64,000 nucleotides of DNA from Armatimonadota bacterium (lineage in GTDB: Bacteria > Armatimonadota > HRBIN16): assembly GCA_026003195.1 (NCBI GenBank), contig BPGU01000002.1:310001-374000 (forward strand), in the 5' to 3' direction. A model generated the notes under the pieces. It ran no database searches, was not told the DNA's origin, and worked only from the letters and a program-made list of their open reading frames with translations. Of the stretch, positions 3,658-18,829 are shown in pieces. The translations under genes and the position numbers were made by a program. How positions within the stretch are numbered: position 1 is the first letter of the stretch; each line of letters starts with the position of its first letter.

Positions 3658-4845
3658 ATGATGGGGCAAGTGATTCAGCGAACGTTTGCTCCCTGGCCGC
3701 ACTTTGAAGAGGATGAGATAGAAGCGGCGGTACGGGTGCTGCGTTCGGGGAAGGTGAACTACTGGACAGGTGAAGAGGGGCGTCTGTTCGAGAAAGAGTT
3801 CGCCGCCTTTGCTGGTTGCGAGTATGCGGTCGCGCTGGCAAATGGTAGTGTGGCGCTGGAGCTGGCTTTATATGCTCTGGGCATCGGCGAAGGTGATGAG
3901 GTGGTGGTCACCAGCCGAACCTTCGTCGCGTCGGCGAGCTCGGTGGTGTTGCGTGGAGCCAGGCCGGTCTTTGCCGATGTAGACCCCAACAGCCAGAACA
4001 TTACCGCCGAAACCGTCAGCGCGGTGCTCACGCCGCACACGAAGGCGATTATCGCGGTGCATCTGGCTGGATGGCCCTGTGAGATGGATGAAATCATGGC
4101 TCTGGCACAGGAGCACGGGTTGTGGGTCATCGAAGACTGCGCACAAGCACATGGTGCTACCTACAAAGGGCGCCCTGTCGGAGGTTTGGGGCACGTCGCC
4201 GCGTGGTCGTTCTGTCAGGACAAAATCATGACCACCGGTGGCGAAGGCGGAATGCTCACCACCAACGATCGCACCCTCTGGGAGAGAGCATGGTCGTACA
4301 AGGATCACGGCAAAAGCTACGAGGCGGTGTATCATCGCCAGCATCCGCCCGGGTTTCGCTGGCTGCATGAAACGTTCGGTACGAACTGGCGCATGACCGA
4401 AATGCAATCTGCCATCGGGCGGGTGGCTCTGCGCAAGGTACCCCGCTGGGTGGCGATTCGAAGACGTCATGCACAAATCCTCACAGAACGGTTCCTGCAA
4501 ACACCGGGGTTGCGTGTCACTATTCCTCCAGACCATATCGGACATGCTTATTACCGATACTATGTCTTCGTCCGCCCCGAAATGCTTCAGCCTGACTGGA
4601 ACCGCGACCGGATTATGGTGGAGCTGAATCAACAGGGCATCCCCTGCAATGTGGGCAGTTGCAGTGAGGTGTATCTGGAGAAATCCTTTGAGCATGCCGG
4701 GTTACAGCCATCTCAGCGGCTACCGGTGGCTCAGCAGCTGGGTGAAACCTCGCTGGCGTTTCTGGTTCATCCCACCCTGAGCGAAGAAGATATGCAGGAT
4801 ATTGCGAACGCGGTCTCGAAAGTGATGGAAAAAGCCTGCCGATAA
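3658..4845 (+). CDS. DegT/DnrJ/EryC1/StrS-family sugar aminotransferase (PglE-like)
   Basis: This PLP-dependent aminotransferase of 395 residues would convert a nucleotide-linked keto-sugar to an amino-sugar with glutamate as donor. Typical motifs include a conserved ANGSVALELALYALG near residue 60, EDCAQAHGATYKG near 155-170, and the PLP-binding Lys189 in SFCQDKIMTTGGEGG. The C-terminal half has RMTEMQSAIGRVALRK, normal for the family. ATG 3658 and ATG 3661 are both possible starts, preceded by a purine-rich GGGAGAGAGG. The gene lies directly after the PglD-like acetyltransferase, so the pair probably makes an N-acetylated amino sugar from a 4-keto intermediate. The matching 4,6-dehydratase may be outside the window. 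Confidence 0.92.
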   Translation: MMGQVIQRTFAPWPHFEEDEIEAAVRVLRSGKVNYWTGEEGRLFEKEFAAFAGCEYAVALANGSVALELALYALGIGEGDEVVVTSRTFVASASSVVLRGARPVFADVDPNSQNITAETVSAVLTPHTKAIIAVHLAGWPCEMDEIMALAQEHGLWVIEDCAQAHGATYKGRPVGGLGHVAAWSFCQDKIMTTGGEGGMLTTNDRTLWERAWSYKDHGKSYEAVYHRQHPPGFRWLHETFGTNWRMTEMQSAIGRVALRKVPRWVAIRRRHAQILTERFLQTPGLRVTIPPDHIGHAYYRYYVFVRPEMLQPDWNRDRIMVELNQQGIPCNVGSCSEVYLEKSFEHAGLQPSQRLPVAQQLGETSLAFLVHPTLSEEDMQDIANAVSKVMEKACR

Positions 4846-9238: not shown

Positions 9239-9859
9239 CTACGTCCCGTATAGCCTGTCGCCGAAGTCGCCGATGCCGGGCAGGATGTATTTGGCGGGGT
9301 TCAGCTCCCTGTCCAGCGCGGCGGTGAAGATGGGCACGTCGGGATGGTGACGCTCGATGCGCTCCACGCCCTCCGGCGCAGCCACGATGCATACCAGGAT
9401 CATACTCCCCGCCCCGCGGCTGCGTATCGCCGCCAGAGCCTGGTCTACCGATCCTCCCGTCGCCAGCATGGGGTCAATCAACAACACCGTGCGCCCTTCC
9501 ACCGGCGGCAGCTTCAAGTAGTACGAGTTGGCAACGGCGGTAGCGTGGTCGCGCTCCATGCCGATATAGCCCACCGACACATCGGGAAAGAGGTCTACCA
9601 CTGCTTCCAGCATCCCCAGCCCCGCGCGCAGGATGGGCACAACCACCAGCCTTGCCGAAAGCACCGTGCCCTGCGTCTCCTCCAATGGCGTCTCCACCGT
9701 CACGCTTTCGGTGGGCAGGTCGCGGGTGGCTTCAATAACCAGGATGGTGGTCAGCTTGCGGGTCAGGGAGCGAAAGACTTCAGGCGGGGTATGCTTGTTG
9801 CGGAGCTGGGTCAGTAGATGGTGCGCTAAAGGGTGCTGTACCACGTGCAAATTACTCAC
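9239..9859 (-). CDS. upp: Uracil phosphoribosyltransferase
   Basis: This 206-residue enzyme salvages uracil to UMP using PRPP. The sequence begins VSNLHVVQHPLAHHLLTQLRNKHTPP, matching the usual Upp N-terminus. It contains VVPILRAGLGMLEAVVDLFPD, and the PRPP-binding loop is VLLIDPMLATGGSVDQAL. The C-terminal KYILPGIGDFGDRLYGT is the uracil-binding region. The frame is open further upstream, but GTG 9859 is preceded by AAGGAGG at the right distance and gives the standard family length. It overlaps the pseudouridine synthase stop by eight bases, so the two genes are co-transcribed. Confidence 0.96.
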   Translation of the reverse strand: MSNLHVVQHPLAHHLLTQLRNKHTPPEVFRSLTRKLTTILVIEATRDLPTESVTVETPLEETQGTVLSARLVVVPILRAGLGMLEAVVDLFPDVSVGYIGMERDHATAVANSYYLKLPPVEGRTVLLIDPMLATGGSVDQALAAIRSRGAGSMILVCIVAAPEGVERIERHHPDVPIFTAALDRELNPAKYILPGIGDFGDRLYGT

Positions 9860-10859
9860 GGGCTTCCTCCTTTTTGGCTCTGAGCCAGTCGATAATCGCC
9901 TGCATGTCTTCGGGTGGTTCACAGGTAAAGGTCATCTCCTGTCGGGTAACGGGATGGGTGAAGGTCAAACGGTAGGCGTGCAGTGCCTGACCGCCCATGC
10001 GCTCAACCAGTTCATCCAGCACACGCGCCTCCGCCCTTTTCCAGCCGTACTGCGTCGCCGAACGCCCCGCGCCGTATACAGGGTCGCCCACTACCGGATG
10101 CCCTGCGTACGCTGCGTGCACGCGCACCTGATGCGTTCTGCCCGTATGCAGCCGCGCTTCCAGCAGGGAACAGACACCCAGGTTCTCCCGCAGTTCGAAC
10201 TCGGTGACCGCCGGTCGAGCGCTGGTATCATGCACCGGCGACTTGACGCTCATGCGGGTACGGTCGCTCTCGCTGCGCCCGATGGGTGCGTCCACCAGTG
10301 CCCTCTGGAAACGCGGCACGCCCCACACCAGCGCAAGGTATCGCCTCTCCACCAGCCTTTGCTGAATCTGCTCCGAGAGGGCATGGTGCGCGAGGTCGGT
10401 GCGTGCGATGATGATGAGACCGGTGGTGTCTTTGTCCAGCCGATGCACGATGCCCGGTCGCTCCGGCGAGCCGACGGTGGACAGCCTGCCGAAACGCGCC
10501 AGTGCTGCATTCACCAGCGTGCCGCTCTCGGCACCGGGCGCGGGGTGCGTGACCATGCCACGCGGTTTGTTCACCACCGCCAGATGCTCGTCCTCGTACA
10601 GCACCTGCAGGGGGATGGGCTCAGGCAGAGGCTCGGCAGGGGGCGGTGCAGGCGGTTCCAGATAGACCTCATCGCCCGTCTTCAGGCGCACGTTGGGCTT
10701 CACCAACCTGCCGTTGAGCTCCACCACGCCCGCCTCAATCCATCGCTGAATCTGCGCGCGCGACACCTCAGGCAGGCGCTGTGCGAGAAACACATCCAGC
10801 CGAACACCCTCATCGGCAGGGGTGGCGTGATACCAGAGCGCATGGGTCGTCTCTTCCAT
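9852..10859 (-). CDS. rluD: RluA/RluD-family 23S rRNA pseudouridine synthase
   Basis: This 335-residue protein has an N-terminal S4 RNA-binding domain (about residues 15-75, RLDVFLAQRLPEVSRAQIQRWI) and a catalytic pseudouridine synthase domain with the hallmark HRLDKDTTGLIIIA, in which the Asp is the catalytic nucleophile. LHTGRTHQVRVHAAYAGHPVVGD is the second family motif. The closest typical member is RluD, which modifies helix 69 of 23S rRNA. A TATAAT box lies just upstream of the ATG on the minus strand (about 10872), but no convincing -35 was seen. It is followed by upp with a short overlap. Confidence 0.93.
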   Translation of the reverse strand: MEETTHALWYHATPADEGVRLDVFLAQRLPEVSRAQIQRWIEAGVVELNGRLVKPNVRLKTGDEVYLEPPAPPPAEPLPEPIPLQVLYEDEHLAVVNKPRGMVTHPAPGAESGTLVNAALARFGRLSTVGSPERPGIVHRLDKDTTGLIIIARTDLAHHALSEQIQQRLVERRYLALVWGVPRFQRALVDAPIGRSESDRTRMSVKSPVHDTSARPAVTEFELRENLGVCSLLEARLHTGRTHQVRVHAAYAGHPVVGDPVYGAGRSATQYGWKRAEARVLDELVERMGGQALHAYRLTFTHPVTRQEMTFTCEPPEDMQAIIDWLRAKKEEARE

Positions 10860-10994
10860 CTCATCTGCATTATATCACGCCTTGCCCCTGCCGAGAAGAA
10901 TCAGCGAGCGCTTGGGGAAGGGGAGCCATCCGGCTGGTTGTTGTGCTCCACACAGGGCAACTCCGCAACGTCCCAACTGCCTGTCCGCTGAGAG
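10860..10994. other. Intergenic stretch between rluD and the stalk-domain gene
   Basis: This 135-base gap separates the rluD start from the 3' end of the secreted stalk-domain gene, both on the minus strand. It contains a minus-strand TATAAT near 10872, likely the rluD -10. No convincing terminator hairpin with a T-run was seen. Confidence 0.4.
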
Positions 10995-12233
10995 TCACCT
11001 CCTGCCTAACCCAATAACTACCAGCCGCTTTGCACGTTCATAACGCACCTGCGCCCTCAACACCCGCTCCACAACGTCCAGCGGAACATACAAACGCCCG
11101 CCAACGACACATGCGGGCGCCGATGCCTGCAACACCTTGCCGTTCACCTGATACTCCCTGCTGCCCTTCTGCAGCACCGCCGTGCCACCTCTACCAGCAA
11201 GGAGCGCCTTCCCACTCTGCTCCCACCGTAAACTGCCACGCTTGCCCCTGTCCGCCAAGTAGCCTGCCCAAAGGTACGCCTGTCCCCCAATGTCTATCGC
11301 AGGACGGTTCAGATGGATCCTTTGACCGTCCCACTCCACCTGCAACGATCTGCCGGGCACCACTGCTTGCGCACGAACCGGGCGTGTTTTCCCAGAAGGA
11401 ACACCCATCAACATATCTGACCAGAGGAGCGCACCGGTGAAGCCATCCACCAAACATACATACCCAACTCGCCCACGCCCCTCCTCCCAGCTGTACACGG
11501 TCAACTCGTATGCCAGTGTCTCCCAACCGAAGGGGTCAGGGGGAGTGACTCGTATTCCATACAGTGAGCCTGCTTCGGGGCTGGACAGTTGCAACTGTTG
11601 GGCTGCTGCAGAAAAAGCCTGCTCGGCGTTCAGTGCGGGGTTGATGCCGACCATGACCGGATAGTGACGGCAATAAGCACCCGTAATGCGTCCGTAAACG
11701 ACGTCTACATTTACTCTGCAGAAGCTCGGTCCATACACGCCGTTAGGGAAGCGCTGCCAAAAACGCACGGTATACTCCGCGTGGGCACGCCCGATCTCAC
11801 CGAACTTGCGAACCTCTACGTGGTTGAGCAGTTCGGGGAAGGGATAGTGTGCCTGCATATACGAGCGGGCGATGGCTACCGCTTGCTCTTCCCCTATCGC
11901 CCGGCGCAGTAACATCTCCTCGCTCAAGGGCTCGTCATAGAACTCTTGGGAGGAATAGCTCCAGATCCATGACCAGTGGTTGATGTTGTAGGCGCAAATG
12001 CGGAATTGCCTCCGGTTGCATTCCAGCACGTGGTGGACATCTATTCCGGGTCGCGCAGAAGGGGGTGCGATGTATTTTACCTCTATAGGTGTATTGCTGC
12101 CTTCTCCGAGAATGTCGCGCACCTTTTGCACCGCCTGCTCCCGTGTGACGTACTGCCAGACGTACTGCGCAGAGGCAACCGTGCCCCAACAGCACAGCGC
12201 ACACAAGACGAGGATGCATGTGGTCTGTTTCAT
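10995..12233 (-). CDS. Secreted PepSY-like/stalk-domain protein (module A)
   Basis: This 412-residue protein has a signal peptide (MKQTTCILVLCALCCWGTVASA). The middle holds repeated PepSY/YpeB-like elements, for example GEEQAVAIARSYMQAHYP and LNAEQAFSAAAQQLQL, each a helix with a conserved alternation that in known families occurs in peptidase propeptides and inhibitors. The C-terminal 100 residues resemble a copper-amine-oxidase N-terminal (stalk) domain, ending VGGRLYVPLDVVERVLRAQVRYERAKRLVVI. ATG 12233 is chosen because GGAGGT lies upstream. It is the last gene of a four-gene minus-strand operon and is 24 bases after the B gene. The function is unknown; a role as partner or inhibitor of B is speculation. 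Confidence 0.8.
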   Translation of the reverse strand: MKQTTCILVLCALCCWGTVASAQYVWQYVTREQAVQKVRDILGEGSNTPIEVKYIAPPSARPGIDVHHVLECNRRQFRICAYNINHWSWIWSYSSQEFYDEPLSEEMLLRRAIGEEQAVAIARSYMQAHYPFPELLNHVEVRKFGEIGRAHAEYTVRFWQRFPNGVYGPSFCRVNVDVVYGRITGAYCRHYPVMVGINPALNAEQAFSAAAQQLQLSSPEAGSLYGIRVTPPDPFGWETLAYELTVYSWEEGRGRVGYVCLVDGFTGALLWSDMLMGVPSGKTRPVRAQAVVPGRSLQVEWDGQRIHLNRPAIDIGGQAYLWAGYLADRGKRGSLRWEQSGKALLAGRGGTAVLQKGSREYQVNGKVLQASAPACVVGGRLYVPLDVVERVLRAQVRYERAKRLVVIGLGRR

Positions 12234-12256
12234 GATGAGATACCTCCTTCGCATGG

Positions 12257-13495
12257 TTATGGTGTGATGCGCAGTGTTGCGTCGCCTTGGAACAGAGCAT
12301 TAAATTCTGCTGGGCTGAGTATTGCACCAGCGTAAGTATCGCTAATCCAATCCCGGGTGTTTTTCAACGCCTCCAGGCAAGCATCGCGCACCGTGTTGTT
12401 CTTCAGAAGCTGCATGAAGCCTGGTCGGGCGTCATTGCCGCCACCGTATCCATCGAGGAAGACGCATACTGCATTGGAGTACACTTCCCAGTAACCGATG
12501 GTTACCGTGGTCTTCGCCCCCTTATACAGAAACCAGTCGCTCAGACCGCCTGCTTGAAACCCCGCGTTCAGCCCGCAACCCGCCAGAACTACCAGTTCCA
12601 GATTCGTCAGAGTCTGTCCAGGTCCGCCGATGCTTTCCACGATCAGGCAGTCCTGCCGCCCACGTAGCCCGGGAATAGTGTTCCAGTCGGCATAGCTGGT
12701 GACAAGCCACTTCTGGCTACCCTGAGGAGCCGACTGCGGCATCTGGTTGTCACCTTTCATGAGCAGCAGTTTGCCCTCAAGGTCGGCGTGGCTGTGTCCA
12801 CTAAAAAGCACCATCTTCAGCGGCTTTCTGCCTATCGCCGGGTCGTAATATTCCAGAGCACCCCGCATCTGTCTTATCCAGGGATTGCTATACCACCAAT
12901 CGTAACCGGGTACTTTTTTGAAGCCTAAGGCTTTTCCTCCGTTCACAAAATAGAGAGCCTGAGAATTGAACTGTCCGTGTGTGAAGGCAATGAGAGCACT
13001 GTATATCTTCTGCTGGTTATGGGGAAGCGCTTCCCGCAAACGGTGTGCCTTGTCGAGGTCACGGTGGTTATCCTGTGCCCGCAACAGAAAGATGTATCTG
13101 CCTGCCTCGGTGGGCGATGGTATGGTAAACGTCACATCGTGACTGCCGTCAGTCAAATCGGGTGAACTAAGCGCACACGCGAAGTATACGTCCAGCGCAG
13201 GGTCAAAAACCTGTATCTGTCCTTGAGAGGCTGGGTAACCTTGCGCGGAGGACAGATGGTATTGTATGCAATATGTGGCTGTTTGTCCATCATCCACACA
13301 TTGGATGGAGCCTGCTGCAAGATGCATAAAATCCGACCGATTGCTGTCCCTGTCCGGTGGTGCACTGCCGGACACATACGCCGACAGGCGATACAGGTAT
13401 ATCCCTCGCGGGACGGCGCTGCCGTCTCCTAACTTCCCATCCCATGTCCACACGATGTACATCCGGACCAAAGCATAGGCGTTAGCGGGGCACAT
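12257..13495 (-). CDS. FlgD-Ig/caspase-like protein, 5'-truncated copy (module B)
   Basis: I do not recognise a named family for the whole protein. It starts with a FlgD-type Ig-like strand pair (TWDGKLGDGSAVPRGIYLYRL), then a beta-rich region. Its C-terminal half has a possible His-Cys pair: VLFSGHSHADLEG and, about 70 residues later, LELVVLAGCGLNAG, similar in layout to caspase/CHAT peptidases. The N-terminus is damaged. The homologue at 14856-16178 has a signal peptide and about 35 more residues before TWDGK, whereas here that part is deleted and the frame runs back into the end of the upstream gene. ATG 13495 is a guess; no ribosome-binding site is convincing. It may be non-exported or a pseudogene. 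Confidence 0.65.
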   Translation of the reverse strand: MCPANAYALVRMYIVWTWDGKLGDGSAVPRGIYLYRLSAYVSGSAPPDRDSNRSDFMHLAAGSIQCVDDGQTATYCIQYHLSSAQGYPASQGQIQVFDPALDVYFACALSSPDLTDGSHDVTFTIPSPTEAGRYIFLLRAQDNHRDLDKAHRLREALPHNQQKIYSALIAFTHGQFNSQALYFVNGGKALGFKKVPGYDWWYSNPWIRQMRGALEYYDPAIGRKPLKMVLFSGHSHADLEGKLLLMKGDNQMPQSAPQGSQKWLVTSYADWNTIPGLRGRQDCLIVESIGGPGQTLTNLELVVLAGCGLNAGFQAGGLSDWFLYKGAKTTVTIGYWEVYSNAVCVFLDGYGGGNDARPGFMQLLKNNTVRDACLEALKNTRDWISDTYAGAILSPAEFNALFQGDATLRITP

Positions 13496-14840
13496 TGGTT
13501 TTGGCTCTTTGAAGAACAATCCTATCTCCTGTGACCTCTACCCTCCAGCCGGTAATGCGCTCGACGGCGCTAACCGGCACGTACATGCGCGCACGGATGC
13601 GGCGAACGGGATACGGTAATGCAACCCTGCCTCTGTCAGAAAGTAACCACTTGCTGCCTTCTGTGAGCCGCCATTGATTCTTATTGAGGGTAACACGCAC
13701 TTCCCGGCGAGAGGTGTCATATTCTACGCGCGAGGCGGATTTCCCAAACAGAGGTGAACGCAGCCAGCCTACATGCAAATACACTACGCCGTCTATCTCC
13801 AGAGGGGGCAGCATGAACAGTTTGGAAGCATCGGTGTCGCCGAAGTATATCTTCATGATGCGCGCTTCTATTCTCTTCGAAGCGCTACGCTCCGAGTGTC
13901 CTCTCGCCTTGCGCTCCACTCTTGCGCCGATTATTTCATCATACACGAATACATCCCCCGTGTGCGCGTCCACGACAATGATGTAGCTCTGCGCTACAGT
14001 GGGAGGCGCGTCTGTATCCAACTCCGCCACTATTGGAAAGCTCCATACTAGTCGCGAGGTGCCCAGCTCATCGGAATAGATACCAAAACCGATACGATAT
14101 GTGCTCTCGTCCACCTCTGCGGAAAGCACGCCCGGCATTTGGGAGACAAACGCCAGAGCCAGCTGGCGCGCTTGCTGTTGCGACAAGGTCGGAATGGCAG
14201 AAAGCCCCGCCGGCTCTCCGGGGTCGAACCAGTAGCATTCTTTGACTACACCCAGCCGCTTATGAACCTTCACCCATGCCACCCGCATCTGGAGAACGCC
14301 CTGATAGAGCACGTGCACCCCTAGAAAACCGTATCTCTCGTCTATCTCGTTTGGCAGCGCGAGGAAGTTCGGCACGCGCTGCGCGAAAAACTGCTGTGCA
14401 ACCGCACGCAGCTGCTCACGAGGCAACCATTGGGAGGAATCCTCACCTTCATCCTCCCTTAAGGCGGAGGGGTCTCTATAAACCCACAGTTCAGTGGGCA
14501 CAATGGCAACAACATACTCCCTCCCATAGTTGTCCACGAACAGATATGACGGTTCGGTACCGGCATACCAGTATGGGTAGTAGGTATTGACCCCTGTGGA
14601 GAGGTTTTCCAGCTTGATTGGACTGCTTGCCGTGACGCCGATGAGACGGAGCTGAAGACCGGGAGTATTCATCCACCTCAAAAGACGTCGCTGCGCCTCT
14701 TCGGGCGTCAGCCCGAACTGCATTATCGCCGGGTCATATGGCACGTAATAGTGTGAGTTGAACATCCTCACCTTCAACTGCCCGCCTGCTGCCTGCACAG
14801 CAGTAAGAACCAGTAACGTCAGCCAGGTATACCGTTTCAT
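13482..14840 (-). CDS. Secreted PepSY-like/stalk-domain protein (module A')
   Basis: This 452-residue protein is the counterpart of the gene at 10995-12233. It has a signal peptide (MKRYTWLTLLVLTAVQAAGG), then two PepSY-like stretches (LPREQLRAVAQQFFAQRVPN and LSQQQARQLALAFVSQMPG), a strand-rich segment ending TGDVFVYDEIIGA, and a C-terminal stalk domain (ARMYVPVSAVERITGWRVEVTGDRIVL). ATG 14840 has an AGGAGG site upstream, and the gene begins 15 bases after the B' stop. Sequence identity to the other A copy is low, so the duplication is old or the pair diverged quickly. Its 3' end overlaps the truncated B gene. Function unknown. Confidence 0.8.
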   Translation of the reverse strand: MKRYTWLTLLVLTAVQAAGGQLKVRMFNSHYYVPYDPAIMQFGLTPEEAQRRLLRWMNTPGLQLRLIGVTASSPIKLENLSTGVNTYYPYWYAGTEPSYLFVDNYGREYVVAIVPTELWVYRDPSALREDEGEDSSQWLPREQLRAVAQQFFAQRVPNFLALPNEIDERYGFLGVHVLYQGVLQMRVAWVKVHKRLGVVKECYWFDPGEPAGLSAIPTLSQQQARQLALAFVSQMPGVLSAEVDESTYRIGFGIYSDELGTSRLVWSFPIVAELDTDAPPTVAQSYIIVVDAHTGDVFVYDEIIGARVERKARGHSERSASKRIEARIMKIYFGDTDASKLFMLPPLEIDGVVYLHVGWLRSPLFGKSASRVEYDTSRREVRVTLNKNQWRLTEGSKWLLSDRGRVALPYPVRRIRARMYVPVSAVERITGWRVEVTGDRIVLQRAKTNVPR

Positions 14841-14855
14841 GGCTTTTCCTCCTGT

Positions 14856-16178
14856 TCAGTGGGTGTTCACTTCCTGTTCATTGTGCATCACGGGAAGCTC
14901 CACTTCGAAACCAGAGTGTAGTGGCTTGCCTCTATAGATCAGATCCTTGACCTGCTCTGCTCCTGCTTTTATTGCCGCACCATAGTCCAGGTACCTTGTA
15001 TTCCTCATTTGGTCACGGAGCGATGTAGTGAACCCGTTGTAGAAAACGTTGCCCTCCGCCTGAGTTATAGCGCGTTTCCACGACACCCTGTTTGCAGTGC
15101 CCTTGCCCCGCAGCACTCCCATGAGAGACTTCGCATCTTCGTGGTTAGCCCCGCTCCAACACGCTGTCATCATCACGTGGGGGGAGACATTGGCAATATG
15201 CACCCTGTAAGCCAGAACCTTACCGCTCGGTTTCGGCGCTTGGTCGTGTGACCATAACCAAGAAGCGGCAAACTGCAGTCCGTAACCGTGAAAGGCTGCT
15301 TCTTGGGCACCGTGCGTGTATGCCATCCATAGCCTCGTGCCGGTAGCGGTCTCGTTCAAGTAATATAGTGCTTCCTGAGCGGCGACATTCAGGAACAGGG
15401 CGTCCTGCTCGCCACGAGGCGGAGTGAATCGGAAATACCAGCCATCACCAGGGCGACGAAACGGAGGGCATCGCTCCCATGCATTCCAAGTGGCTCTGAG
15501 GGAGGATGCCCCGATCGATGTGCCCACCAGTGCCACAGGGTAGTCCCTTACCTGCTGATTGCAAGGCAAAGCTTCCCTCCTTCTGTGCATTTTGTCCGTT
15601 CCATCAGTATCGCCTGTATCCCACGCGCGCATCAGAAATACATACGGACCTCCCTCGTTAGCCTCAAAATCTGCTACGCGAGCACGACAGCCTCCTTCTA
15701 TCGGTTGCCCATTTCCATCAGACACAACCCGCAGGCTGATGGTCGCAACAGCCTCAACCTTGCCTGATCTCATTGCCCCGTTCAGGTGGCAAGTAGCTAT
15801 CCATTTCATCTCATCGCCGTCATAGTCTATTTCTGTAGCTACGATAGCCAGGCTATCCGACCGATTGCTGTCCCTGTCCGGCGGGGCACTGCCAGGCACA
15901 TACGCCGACAGCCGATACAGGTATATCCCTCGCGGGGCAGTGCTGCCGTCTCCTAACTTCCCATCCCATGTCCATGACCATGTGCCCGGACGAGCCACGT
16001 TCGCAAACTCCTTCACCAGCACCGGGTTCTGGTTGTCGTCACTACTGCAGGCTGGATGGCGTATTCGTGGGGATACCATACGATGTACATCCTGACCGAA
16101 GCGTGTGCGTTCGCGAGGCACAGCAGGGCGAGGGCGGTCAGTACCCCCCCATGTGAGTAGCAAAAGCAAGTGTTTCAT
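14856..16178 (-). CDS. Secreted FlgD-Ig/caspase-like protein (module B')
   Basis: This gene of 440 codons is the fuller copy of module B. It contains the FlgD-type Ig motif WSWTWDGKLGDGS and APRGIYLYRL, a beta-rich middle, and a possible His-Cys pair at His289 (WMAYTHGAQEA) and Cys340 (VMMTACWSGA), the spacing and strand context seen in caspase/CHAT-like hydrolases. The first about 45 residues as written look out of frame. Removing one G from a G7 run (16144-16150, minus strand) restores a clean signal peptide ending ANAHA and the segment VRMYIVWYPHEYAIQP. A second, compensating shift returns to the annotated frame before DDNQNPVLVKEF. AAGGAG precedes ATG 16178. A strong promoter lies just upstream. 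Confidence 0.7.
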   Translation of the reverse strand: MKHLLLLLTWGGTDRPRPAVPRERTRFGQDVHRMVSPRIRHPACSSDDNQNPVLVKEFANVARPGTWSWTWDGKLGDGSTAPRGIYLYRLSAYVPGSAPPDRDSNRSDSLAIVATEIDYDGDEMKWIATCHLNGAMRSGKVEAVATISLRVVSDGNGQPIEGGCRARVADFEANEGGPYVFLMRAWDTGDTDGTDKMHRRREALPCNQQVRDYPVALVGTSIGASSLRATWNAWERCPPFRRPGDGWYFRFTPPRGEQDALFLNVAAQEALYYLNETATGTRLWMAYTHGAQEAAFHGYGLQFAASWLWSHDQAPKPSGKVLAYRVHIANVSPHVMMTACWSGANHEDAKSLMGVLRGKGTANRVSWKRAITQAEGNVFYNGFTTSLRDQMRNTRYLDYGAAIKAGAEQVKDLIYRGKPLHSGFEVELPVMHNEQEVNTH

Positions 16179-16221: not shown

Positions 16222-16257
16222 ATATTAGCACCCTTTGCGCAGAATGTCAAGACATTC
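16222..16257 (-). promoter_or_regulatory. Promoter with overlapping inverted repeat for the B'-A'-B-A operon
   Basis: On the minus strand TTGACA (16250-16245) is followed after exactly 17 bases by TAATAT (16227-16222), a good sigma-70-type promoter about 45 bases ahead of the B' start. A perfect inverted repeat, GAATGTC-AA-GACATTC (16242-16257), covers the -35 box, where a repressor or activator could bind. The element overlaps the last codons of lgt. Confidence 0.65.
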
Positions 16258-17023
16258 GCGAAACCTTTTCCGAAAATTTCGCCCTCACCCATCCCGTGCC
16301 GCCAAGCAGCACCATCAGGATGCTCACCCACTGCGCATCGGAAAGACCCAACGCCAGTACCGTAGAGGTTGCCCCCACGCGCCAAAACTCCACAATGAAG
16401 CGGTATACGCCGTACAGGGCGATATATGCCCAGAACACCTTACCCGCAGGATGAGGTGGCTTTTGCATCCGCGCCAGCAGGGCGAAGATGAGCAGATTGG
16501 AGAGCGAGGCGTAAATCTGCGTGGGATGGCTGGGTGGAGTGTGCACGTGCGAGCGGAACGGGTCTTGAAAGGAACACGCCCAGGGCAGGTCGGTGGGTAC
16601 GCCGTAACAGCAGCCCCCCAGAAAACAGCCGATACGCCCTATTGCATAGGCGAGCGCAACACCCGGAGCCAGCACGTCCGCCAGCTGCAGGAAGGGAATG
16701 CCCCTCCGCCGTGCCAGAAAGGCTACCGCCAGCCCCCCTCCGAGAAACGCGCCATGGAACGAGAGACCGCCCTCCCAGAAGGCAAGCACGCGCCAGGGCT
16801 CCTTCGCAAAGCTGCTCCAATCCAGCGCCACGTATGCAACTCTGGCTCCAATCACACCCGCCAGCGCGGTCCACAGCACGAAATCCAGAATCTGCTCGGC
16901 ATCTATCCGGTAACGCGGCGCCACGTGCATCGACCACCATACCGCCAGCGCGAAACCGAGCACAATCATCACGCCATAGGAACGCACCTCTAAGGGTCCG
17001 ATGTGAAAAAGGACAGGATGCAT
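16247..17023 (-). CDS. lgt: Phosphatidylglycerol-prolipoprotein diacylglyceryl transferase
   Basis: This 258-residue, seven-helix inner-membrane enzyme attaches diacylglycerol from phosphatidylglycerol to the lipobox cysteine of prolipoproteins. It begins MHPVLFHIGPLEVRSYGVMI, where the Tyr matches the essential N-terminal Tyr of E. coli Lgt. It has GGLSFHGAFLGG with the conserved His, and the signature loop GRIGCFLGGCCYGVP. The loop carries Cys in place of the Asn of the E. coli signature, a variant I associate with non-proteobacterial members. The C-terminal RFIVEFWRVG holds the conserved Arg and Glu. ATG 17023 follows GAGAAGG. A TATAAT box at 17068-17063 (minus) is the probable -10. Confidence 0.95.
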   Translation of the reverse strand: MHPVLFHIGPLEVRSYGVMIVLGFALAVWWSMHVAPRYRIDAEQILDFVLWTALAGVIGARVAYVALDWSSFAKEPWRVLAFWEGGLSFHGAFLGGGLAVAFLARRRGIPFLQLADVLAPGVALAYAIGRIGCFLGGCCYGVPTDLPWACSFQDPFRSHVHTPPSHPTQIYASLSNLLIFALLARMQKPPHPAGKVFWAYIALYGVYRFIVEFWRVGATSTVLALGLSDAQWVSILMVLLGGTGWVRAKFSEKVSRMS

Positions 17024-17326
17024 GTACCTTCTCCCTTCTCGCAGACACACCCGTTATCTACGATTATACCAGTATGTCTGTAACTCACGGAAACTTCCTC
17101 CCTATTATCCAAATATCAGGAGGAATATATCTCTATTTGTTGAAGAGTAAACAGGGAGTGATTCAGTCTGGCTCAGGCGATAAGTTGCTTCGCCAGTAGT
17201 CTGTCCATTGTCCGTCCGGTAAACGGGTGCGCTCTGACACGACCCGTTTGCGCTGTGGGCTGTTTCACTCTGAAAAAGGGCAAATTTCCTGCCATATCGA
17301 ATGCAGAATGGAGGAGGTGCATAGCC
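17024..17326. other. Divergent intergenic region lgt / octaheme reductase, with an inverted repeat
   Basis: About 300 bases lie between the divergent lgt and octaheme reductase genes. The left part carries the minus-strand -10 of lgt (17063-17068). At 17221-17249 there is a perfect 8-base inverted repeat, AAACGGGT and ACCCGTTT, with a 13-base spacer, placed about 80 bases before the reductase start; it could be a regulator site. GGAGG lies close before ATG 17327. No clear -35/-10 pair for the reductase was seen. Confidence 0.45.
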
Positions 17327-18829
17327 ATGGTTCACCGTAAGATGATGCTGCTCTCGTCGGCGATGCTGATGGCAATCGCCTGGGCGGTGACGGCAAATGT
17401 GCAACCGGAAACCACCCAGCCTGCTGCAGACAAGGCGCAGGAACAATGCGCCGACTGTCACGAGGAAGTGGTCAAAGTGCTTCAGCAACATGCGCACGCG
17501 GGCTTGAGCTGCTCGCAGTGCCACCCCAACGCGCTGGCTCACCAGAACGCAGACGACCCTTCTGAAGTGCTTCCGGTGGTGGATTTCCGTTCCGAAACCT
17601 GCGGCTCGTGCCACAAGTTCCAGTACGAGACTTACTTCACCAGTGAACCCGGCACCGCAGGCGAGTTCGGTGGCACACCTGCCGAGCCCAAAGAGCATCC
17701 GAAAACGAAGGACTTCCCTTTGTATAACAAGATCGTCGCAGGACACGGCTTCACCAAAGAGTACAACGAAGACCGGTCGCATCGCTACATCCTGCGTGAC
17801 CACATCGACATCCAGCGTGGTAAGAACCTTGCCTGCCTGAACTGCAAGTCCACGCAGGTCGCCTACTACTGGGGCAAGGAGTGGAAAGGGCTAGAGCTCA
17901 CCACAGACGGCGACGTGGTCGCCAAGTGGCAGGAAGCCATCCAGCGTATCCCCAAGGAGATGCAGGACTACGGCACCTCCTGCGCGCACTGCCATAATCC
18001 GCACACGGCACAGCTGCAAATCATCAATAAGGCTCTCCTCAACGCCATTGAACGACGCGGCGTGAACCCCTACTGGAAAGAGCGCAACGTCAATAGCTTC
18101 GCCAGGGCGGACAAGCAGCAAAAGGAGATCCTGGTGTGCGCCCAGTGTCACGTAGAGTACGTGTGCGGACCCGGCGCGGACAAGAAGGTACGCTTCGAGT
18201 TCAGCTGGCGCAAGGCGCGAGACCTGCACGACTACTACATGCAGCGCCACAAATACCAGCAGGACTGGGTGCACGAAATCATTGGGGAACCGCTCATCAA
18301 GAGCCAGCACCCCGAGACCGAAACTTTCTGGGAGAGCAAGTATGAGCGGGCAGGCGCATCGTGCGTCACCTGCCACATGCCGAAGGTGAACGTGAACGGA
18401 CGATGGCTCACCTCACACTGGCTGGTATCGCCTCTGCGTTACATCGATAAATACGTGAAGGGCGAAAAGCTGGGCGCTTATCCCTGTGGAGCCTGCCACA
18501 CTGTTTCTCCTCAAAACCTGCGGGAACAGGTGTTGCGCGTGCAGCGCCATGTGAACGAGGCGCAGAAGCGCGTGCAACAAGCACTGAGCGACAGCATCGA
18601 CGCCATCGCCGCCGCAAAACAGGCGAAAGCAGGCGGTAAAAGCGTGGACGAAGAAGTGCTCAAAAAGGCGGTGCTGCTACACCAGCAGGCGCATGTGCGC
18701 TGGGAGAATCTGGTGGTCTCCGAAAACAGCATGGGCTTCCACAATCCCGAAGAGGTGATGAAGGAGCTCAACGAGGCAGTAGACTACGCCCGCCAGGCAC
18801 AGATGCTGGCAACGCAGGCAGTGAAATAA
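17327..18829 (+). CDS. Octaheme cytochrome c nitrite reductase (ONR-like, NrfA-related)
   Basis: This exported 500-residue multiheme cytochrome should reduce nitrite to ammonium with six electrons. It has a signal peptide (about residues 1-23) and eight covalent heme motifs: CADCH (41-45), CSQCH (62-66), CGSCH (92-96), the catalytic CLNCK (170-174), CAHCH (219-223), CAQCH (271-275), CVTCH (346-350) and CGACH (387-391). Active-site residues known in NrfA/ONR can be matched: Arg near 150, Tyr278 in CHVEY, and His328 in QHPE. NrfA has five hemes with CxxCK first. Here three hemes precede it, as in octaheme nitrite reductases such as that of Thioalkalivibrio. No NrfH-type quinol oxidase gene is adjacent. 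ATG 17327 has GGAGG upstream. A C-terminal helical region follows heme 8. Confidence 0.9.
   Translation: MVHRKMMLLSSAMLMAIAWAVTANVQPETTQPAADKAQEQCADCHEEVVKVLQQHAHAGLSCSQCHPNALAHQNADDPSEVLPVVDFRSETCGSCHKFQYETYFTSEPGTAGEFGGTPAEPKEHPKTKDFPLYNKIVAGHGFTKEYNEDRSHRYILRDHIDIQRGKNLACLNCKSTQVAYYWGKEWKGLELTTDGDVVAKWQEAIQRIPKEMQDYGTSCAHCHNPHTAQLQIINKALLNAIERRGVNPYWKERNVNSFARADKQQKEILVCAQCHVEYVCGPGADKKVRFEFSWRKARDLHDYYMQRHKYQQDWVHEIIGEPLIKSQHPETETFWESKYERAGASCVTCHMPKVNVNGRWLTSHWLVSPLRYIDKYVKGEKLGAYPCGACHTVSPQNLREQVLRVQRHVNEAQKRVQQALSDSIDAIAAAKQAKAGGKSVDEEVLKKAVLLHQQAHVRWENLVVSENSMGFHNPEEVMKELNEAVDYARQAQMLATQAVK

What the first reader, a model, noticed from the sequence alone, without database searches (positions are those of the whole stretch)
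10995..16178. Duplicated secreted module of caspase/CHAT-like and PepSY-like/stalk-domain proteins
Two pairs of genes (B'-A' and B-A) lie in tandem on the minus strand under one promoter. B proteins combine a FlgD-type Ig strand pair with a possible His-Cys dyad (His289/Cys340 in B', His242/Cys315 when B is counted from 13519). A proteins have PepSY-like elements, which in known families act as peptidase propeptides or inhibitors, plus a stalk domain. Seen: tandem arrangement, motifs, signal peptides. Inferred: a secreted peptidase with its inhibitor or chaperone. I know of no described system with this layout.
Basis: partly seen in the sequence, partly recalled or inferred. Interest (0 to 1): 0.75.

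Follow-up and report, generated by a model that had tools for sequence, protein, structure and literature searches.

The report
Swappable secreted proteases with dedicated partners
Two neighbouring gene pairs each encode a caspase-like (CHAT-type) protease plus a secreted PepSY partner, probably its inhibitor; they belong to a widespread, modular, easily swapped and often broken gene family that looks like a bacterial toxin-and-immunity system, though no activity has been tested.

Summary
Across 25 related C-terminal domains in one phylum, that His and Cys are the only invariant columns, and the profile's best PDB match is a CHAT-domain protein. The pairing is also real: 36 of 43 distinct CHAT genes are followed by a PepSY/stalk gene, against 1 of 19 genes with the same FlgD-type stalk but another C-terminus.

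The stalk carries interchangeable C-termini (CHAT, amidase, NlpC/P60-like, M23-like, HExxH, C39), and the partner type changes with the enzyme. One B-A module is 98-99.7% identical between two species whose flanks are mostly 73-92% identical. The lgt-rluD site is empty in some species and filled differently in others. Effectors are often broken while partners stay intact. A poly-G tract of varying length lies in the signal-peptide codons.

One correction: A and A' have signal peptides, but B and B' do not in frame. Both have lost their N-terminal display domains.

Best reading: a polymorphic-toxin-like array of secreted proteases with PepSY inhibitor/immunity partners. Pairing and fold family are well supported; inhibition, immunity and phase variation are inferred.

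The parts
14856..16178 (-). B': CHAT-type effector gene, N-terminus scrambled (signal-peptide frame not continuous with the protease)
16144..16150 (-). poly-G tract (G7) in the signal-peptide codons of B', out of phase
16041..16048 (-). junction of a deletion that removed both Ig domains of B' (GCAGT microhomology)
   Evidence: compared with G000:C4 full-length copy
15903..15995 (-). FlgD_ig strands of B'
14859..15563 (-). CHAT-type domain of B' (His codon 15312-15314, Cys codon 15159-15161)
13482..14840 (-). A': secreted PepSY-like + Cu_amine_oxidN1 partner
13524..13811 (-). Cu_amine_oxidN1 (stalk) domain of A'
12257..13519 (-). B: CHAT-type effector gene lacking start region, signal peptide and Ig domains
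12260..13024 (-). CHAT-type domain of B (His codon 12794-12796, Cys codon 12575-12577)
10995..12254 (-). A: secreted PepSY-like + Cu_amine_oxidN1 partner of B
11013..11327 (-). Cu_amine_oxidN1 (stalk) domain of A
   Evidence: E=1e-11
10823..10990 (-). remnant of the pre-catalytic Ig segment of another cassette (NlpC/M23 type)
16222..16250 (-). sigma-70-like promoter upstream of B'
   Evidence: consensus match only
16247..17050 (-). lgt, upstream border of the insertion site
9852..10859 (-). rluD-type pseudouridine synthase, downstream border of the insertion site

Best explanation
B'-A' and B-A are two cassettes of a polymorphic, toxin-like family of secreted hydrolases. A complete member has a Sec signal peptide, two Ig-like domains, a FlgD-type Ig domain and a further Ig segment ending near a 'D..DKAHRRKPAL' boundary, then an exchangeable C-terminal enzyme. 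Here the enzyme is a CHAT/gingipain-like (clan CD) Cys protease. The next gene encodes a secreted partner matched to the enzyme type: PepSY repeats plus a Cu_amine_oxidN1 stalk for CHAT proteases. The partner most likely binds the protease as a propeptide-like inhibitor, protecting the producer and its kin when the stalked protease is displayed or released against neighbouring cells. Cassettes are gained, lost and exchanged as modules. Effectors are silenced by deletions and by length changes in a poly-G tract, while partners are kept. SHOWN: pairing and its dependence on C-terminal type, the dyad, modularity, module exchange, the filled/empty site, broken effectors beside intact partners. INFERRED: proteolysis, inhibition, immunity, target, phase switching.
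For: CHAT fold family: His and Cys are the only invariant columns in 25 diverse domains. Profile versus PDB: 8tl0 'CHAT domain-containing protein' E=0.0012 with His and Cys aligned. Pfam CHAT in 7/25, Peptidase_C25 in 2/25 (one above cutoff). Leave-out HMMs find B (3.3e-4) and B' (0.0027) ahead of 5000 shuffles (best 0.05). Pairing: CHAT followed by PepSY-type gene 36/43 distinct versus 1/19 for other C-termini, Fisher p=4.2e-9; 12 of 14 held-out loci. Amidase C-termini go with PD40 propellers 6/6; CHAT partners 0/20. PepSY partner: PepSY 12/20, Cu_amine_oxidN1 9/20, DUF4901 8/20; PDB matches are a PepSY/M4 propeptide and the Mcp02 metalloprotease. Modularity: same N-terminus with Amidase_3, weak NlpC/P60, weak M23, HExxH, C39. 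Exchange: module 98-99.7% identical, flanks mostly 73-92%. Site: empty in G001, G002, G004, G006; filled differently in G000, G005, G009. Effectors broken, partners intact: 0/6 versus 6/7, p=0.005. Selection: dN/dS 0.25-0.30 window versus C4. Orphan partners.
Against: No activity, toxicity or binding is shown. Window B and B' match no NCBIfam or PADLOC model and only weak Pfam scores. No confident structure was obtained. No CHAT effector in the window's own genome is intact from end to end, so the copies could be decaying. Delivery into or onto another cell is unexplained: complete copies show only a Sec signal, and dedicated export machinery was not searched for. Several seemingly broken genes lie at contig ends of draft genomes.
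Confidence: 0.5

Rival explanations
1. Secreted scavenging or surface-remodelling protease with a separate propeptide: A is a trans-acting foldase/propeptide that helps B fold and keeps it inactive until export, with no antagonistic role; the other stalked hydrolases are ordinary exoenzymes.
For: The partner profile matches propeptides of M4 metalloproteases in the PDB; the pairing is one-to-one and operon-like; both A proteins have signal peptides.
Against: Partners persist intact beside broken effectors and as orphans, which a dedicated foldase would not. Rapid module exchange, enzyme swapping on one stalk and a site filled differently per species fit conflict systems better than housekeeping exoenzymes. 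No fused effector-partner ORF was found.
Confidence: 0.27
2. Decaying multigene family: the window copies are pseudogene remnants of a once-secreted protease family, and the poly-G differences are ordinary frameshifts.
For: B and B' both lack an in-frame signal peptide; the C4 copy has a 25-bp deletion and the G005 copy a 1-bp loss plus G7.
Against: dN/dS is 0.25-0.30 for B and A between window and C4 and 0.14-0.20 to G002; catalytic residues are intact in B and B'; all four A copies are open; complete pairs exist in other families of the phylum. Decay of window B/B' and function of the family can both be true.
Confidence: 0.18
3. A is the substrate or sensor of B: B cleaves A to signal or to release the stalk domain, as CHAT proteases do with dedicated substrates in other systems.
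For: Strict adjacency; A has a separate stalk domain that could be released.
Against: PepSY is known as a peptidase propeptide/inhibitor fold (PMC6393860 citing Yeats 2004); non-CHAT enzymes on the same stalk have unrelated propeller partners, which a shared signalling scheme would not predict; no match to PADLOC defence models.
Confidence: 0.05

Closest known systems
Polymorphic toxin systems (Zhang et al. 2012, PMC3482391)
   Same: Secretion signal, conserved presentation region, a boundary motif, variable C-terminal enzyme, specific downstream partner, orphan cassettes; caspase-like and NlpC/P60 C-terminal toxins are listed there
   Different: Different N-terminal architecture (Ig, Ig, FlgD_ig); no mention of CHAT or PepSY in the held text of that paper; partner is secreted PepSY/stalk or PD40 propeller, not a known Imm family; toxicity and immunity untested
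CHAT / gingipain (C25) clan-CD peptidases, e.g. PDB 8tl0, PF12770, PF01364
   Same: GHG...GC dyad and following GA..VGF and FW segments, profile match with aligned His and Cys
   Different: C-terminal on an Ig/FlgD_ig stalk; adjacent PepSY partner; weak Pfam scores in the window copies
PepSY / YpeB / M4-peptidase propeptides (PF03413)
   Same: PepSY-type VDAxTG signature; PDB matches to M4 propeptides
   Different: Encoded as a separate secreted protein next to a Cys protease, with a Cu_amine_oxidN1 domain
Poly-G contingency (phase-variable) genes, as in Campylobacter
   Same: G tract early in the ORF of a surface/secreted protein, lengths 6-9, some in and some out of frame
   Different: Tracts are short; switching within a population not shown

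Membership tests
CHAT / clan CD peptidase | Conserved His (GHG) and Cys dyad | tested here: met
   Only two invariant columns in 25 sequences; positions in B and B' verified
CHAT / clan CD peptidase | Profile match above curated Pfam cutoff | tested here: inconclusive
   B' CHAT E=0.046, B none; family 7/25 CHAT at E<=1, one member above the C25 cutoff; PDB CHAT chain E=0.0012
CHAT / clan CD peptidase | Caspase-like alpha/beta fold | tested here: inconclusive
   AlphaFold model from two window sequences, pLDDT 33
CHAT / clan CD peptidase | Peptidase activity | not testable with these tools
   needs protein
PepSY (PF03413) | PepSY profile match | tested here: met
   12/20 partners at E<=1, best 5.7e-8; window A and A' alone are below cutoff
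PepSY (PF03413) | Inhibits or chaperones a peptidase | not testable with these tools
   inferred from named families
Cu_amine_oxidN1 (PF07833) | Score above cutoff | tested here: met
   A 45.2 and A' 26.4 bits against 24.2
Polymorphic toxin system | Conserved N-terminal secretion/presentation region with exchangeable C-terminal enzyme | tested here: met
   but not on B and B' of the window, which are headless
Polymorphic toxin system | Cognate partner gene immediately downstream, specific to the C-terminal type | tested here: met
   36/43 versus 1/19; 12/14 held-out; amidase to PD40 propeller 6/6
Polymorphic toxin system | Orphan cassettes or orphan immunity genes and module exchange | tested here: met
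Polymorphic toxin system | C-terminal domain is toxic and partner neutralises it | not testable with these tools
   needs experiment
Polymorphic toxin system | Known delivery route | tested here: inconclusive
   Only a Sec signal peptide seen in complete copies; no dedicated export machinery was searched for genome-wide
Phase-variable contingency gene | Simple tract whose length sets the reading frame, varying between copies | tested here: met
   12 copies, lengths 6-9, about half in frame; the only G/C runs of 8 or more in 183 kb of genus loci are these tracts
Phase-variable contingency gene | Variation within one population | not testable with these tools
   no reads held

The most novel reading that the evidence does not exclude
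A phylum-wide class of phase-variable, Sec-exported polymorphic effectors that display interchangeable hydrolases on an Ig/FlgD stalk, in which CHAT proteases are used as antagonistic toxins and secreted PepSY proteins serve as their immunity proteins: a CHAT-PepSY toxin-immunity pair not previously described.
Probability: 0.35. Interest if true: 0.82.

Novelty: new variant of a known kind. Interest (0 to 1): 0.62.

Why it matters
It ties a peptidase-propeptide fold (PepSY) and a caspase-like protease (CHAT) into a recurring two-gene unit in a little-studied phylum (CHAT profile hits in 26 of 156 genera searched), and shows that the same display stalk carries several wall- or protein-cutting enzymes, with partner types that differ by enzyme. 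If the partners are immunity proteins, this would be a new route to bacterial antagonism that may need only the Sec pathway, and a new role for PepSY. The complete pairs outside the window's genus make direct bench tests simple.

Tried and rejected
Structure prediction of B with only the two window sequences as alignment gave pLDDT 33 and was discarded; no fold search was run on it. Relatives were sought in genome contigs, viral contigs and plasmids without hits, so the taxon could not be named. A defence-system reading was tested with PADLOC: no match. Programmed -1 frameshifting at the G tract was considered and rejected for the G7 copies, where a +1 shift would be needed. Assembly error as the cause of the G-tract differences was considered: it cannot be excluded for single copies, but housekeeping genes beside the locus are intact. 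Papers: no paper in the library holds both 'CHAT domain' and 'PepSY', nor Armatimonadota/Armatimonadetes with CHAT domain or polymorphic toxin; that phylum name was only a guess of mine, and the phylum of the window is not established here.
Full report
OBSERVATION. Four ORFs lie as stated: B' 14856-16178, A' 13482-14840, B 12257-13519, A 10995-12254, all on the minus strand and nearly touching. Both A proteins carry a Cu_amine_oxidN1 domain above Pfam's cutoff; PepSY is weak in each alone. A and A' have clear hydrophobic signal peptides; B and B' do not. In B' the codons for a good signal peptide (MKHLLLLLTW-GVLTALALLCLANAHAS) are out of phase with the start because of a G7 run, and that frame then stops shortly after a deletion junction; the protease is in the other frame. 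B begins inside the end of A', with only the last residues of a former signal peptide, fused by another deletion to the FlgD-type domain.

WHAT A COMPLETE MEMBER LOOKS LIKE. The window's own genome has a second copy on contig 4 (L037:4376-6133) with signal peptide, two Ig-like domains, FlgD_ig, a further Ig segment and the CHAT domain, followed by an A gene whose protein is 94.5% identical to window A. It is in frame at its G6 tract, but a 25-bp deletion removes the last part of the CHAT domain.

FOLD FAMILY OF B. I aligned 25 C-terminal domains from the phylum; His (in GHG/GHS) and Cys (in GC or AC) are the only invariant columns, followed by GA..VGF and FW segments. The profile's best PDB match is 8tl0, a CHAT-domain protein, E=0.0012, with both catalytic residues aligned. 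Seven members match Pfam CHAT and two Peptidase_C25, one above its cutoff. Leave-out profiles still find window B (E=3.3e-4) and B' (E=0.0027), against a best of 0.05 among 5000 shuffles. G100:C209 (another family) has a relative of B followed by a relative of A. A structure model from the two window sequences alone was useless, so the fold itself rests on sequence profiles.

PARTNER. Twenty partners of CHAT proteins: 12 match PepSY, 9 Cu_amine_oxidN1, 8 DUF4901; the profile finds a PepSY/M4 propeptide and the Mcp02 metalloprotease in the PDB. In 14 CHAT loci not used to build the profiles, 12 are followed by a PepSY-type gene. Over all distinct loci, 36 of 43 CHAT genes have one next door, against 1 of 19 genes with the same FlgD_ig stalk but another C-terminus, p=4.2e-9. 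Some of the 43 were used in building the partner profile, so the held-out figure is the cleaner one. Six Amidase_3 versions are all followed by a PD40 beta-propeller. No ORF fuses effector and partner.

MODULARITY AND EXCHANGE. On the same stalk I find CHAT, Amidase_3, a weak NlpC/P60 match, a weak M23 match, HExxH and C39 domains. G002 contig 50 holds a row of such cassettes with partners, plus orphan partners and an internally deleted B'. The B-A module of contig 4 is 98-99.7% identical to that of another species (G005), while the flanks are mostly 73-92% identical with sharp borders; this indicates recent exchange of the module. The window's site between lgt and rluD has the two genes side by side in G001, G002, G004 and G006. 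In G005 it holds B'-A' only. In G009 it holds a different stalk fragment after lgt and, before rluD, a relative of the partner found beside the NlpC-type effector. In the window it holds B'-A'-B-A and a remnant of yet another cassette.

BROKEN EFFECTORS, INTACT PARTNERS. For the B and B' types in this genus, none of six assessable effectors is whole, but six of seven partners are (p=0.005; small numbers, draft genomes). A and B still show dN/dS of 0.25-0.30 between window and contig 4, so both were under constraint until recently.

POLY-G TRACT. Twelve copies in the genus carry a G tract in the signal-peptide codons, 6 to 9 long (two interrupted), about half in frame. The only G/C runs of 8 or more in 183 kb of these loci are these tracts. 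This fits a phase-variable switch but is not proof; tracts are short and no reads are held.

MECHANISM. Polymorphic toxin systems are known to carry caspase-like and NlpC/P60 C-terminal toxins (PMC3482391), and PepSY is described as a protease inhibitor (PMC6393860). The features above fit a secreted, stalk-displayed protease with a PepSY inhibitor acting as immunity protein. Shown: pairing, specificity by enzyme type, dyad, modularity, exchange, broken effectors. Inferred: protease activity, inhibition, antagonism, delivery, phase switching. The main rival is a trans-acting propeptide or foldase without antagonism; orphan and retained partners speak against it.

LIMITS. Many are draft assemblies; some apparent breaks may be assembly ends. 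Partners were taken as the largest ORF downstream; CHAT loci with too little downstream sequence were set aside.

Noticed in passing
L133:868-2739 with 157-840, and L158:2934-3824 with 3840-4502: A further C-terminal domain of unknown kind on the same stalk, paired in two families of the phylum with a 221-228 aa partner.
   Followed up: no
L148:2267-4762: Stalk protein with a C39-like peptidase and a weak match to the middle domain of protein-arginine deiminase.
   Followed up: no
L090:9950-19975 (G002 contig 50): Row of hydrolase/partner cassettes: M23-like, propeller, M23-like, propellers, truncated B', A', A'-like.
   Followed up: partly
L080 and L043 (ends of G005 contigs 2 and 5): Two differing versions of the A'-rluD junction at contig ends, possibly strain variants or an assembly effect.
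   Followed up: no
window 17255-18829 (+): Cytochrome c552 (NrfA-type) gene with extra multihaem motifs directly beside the locus.
   Followed up: no
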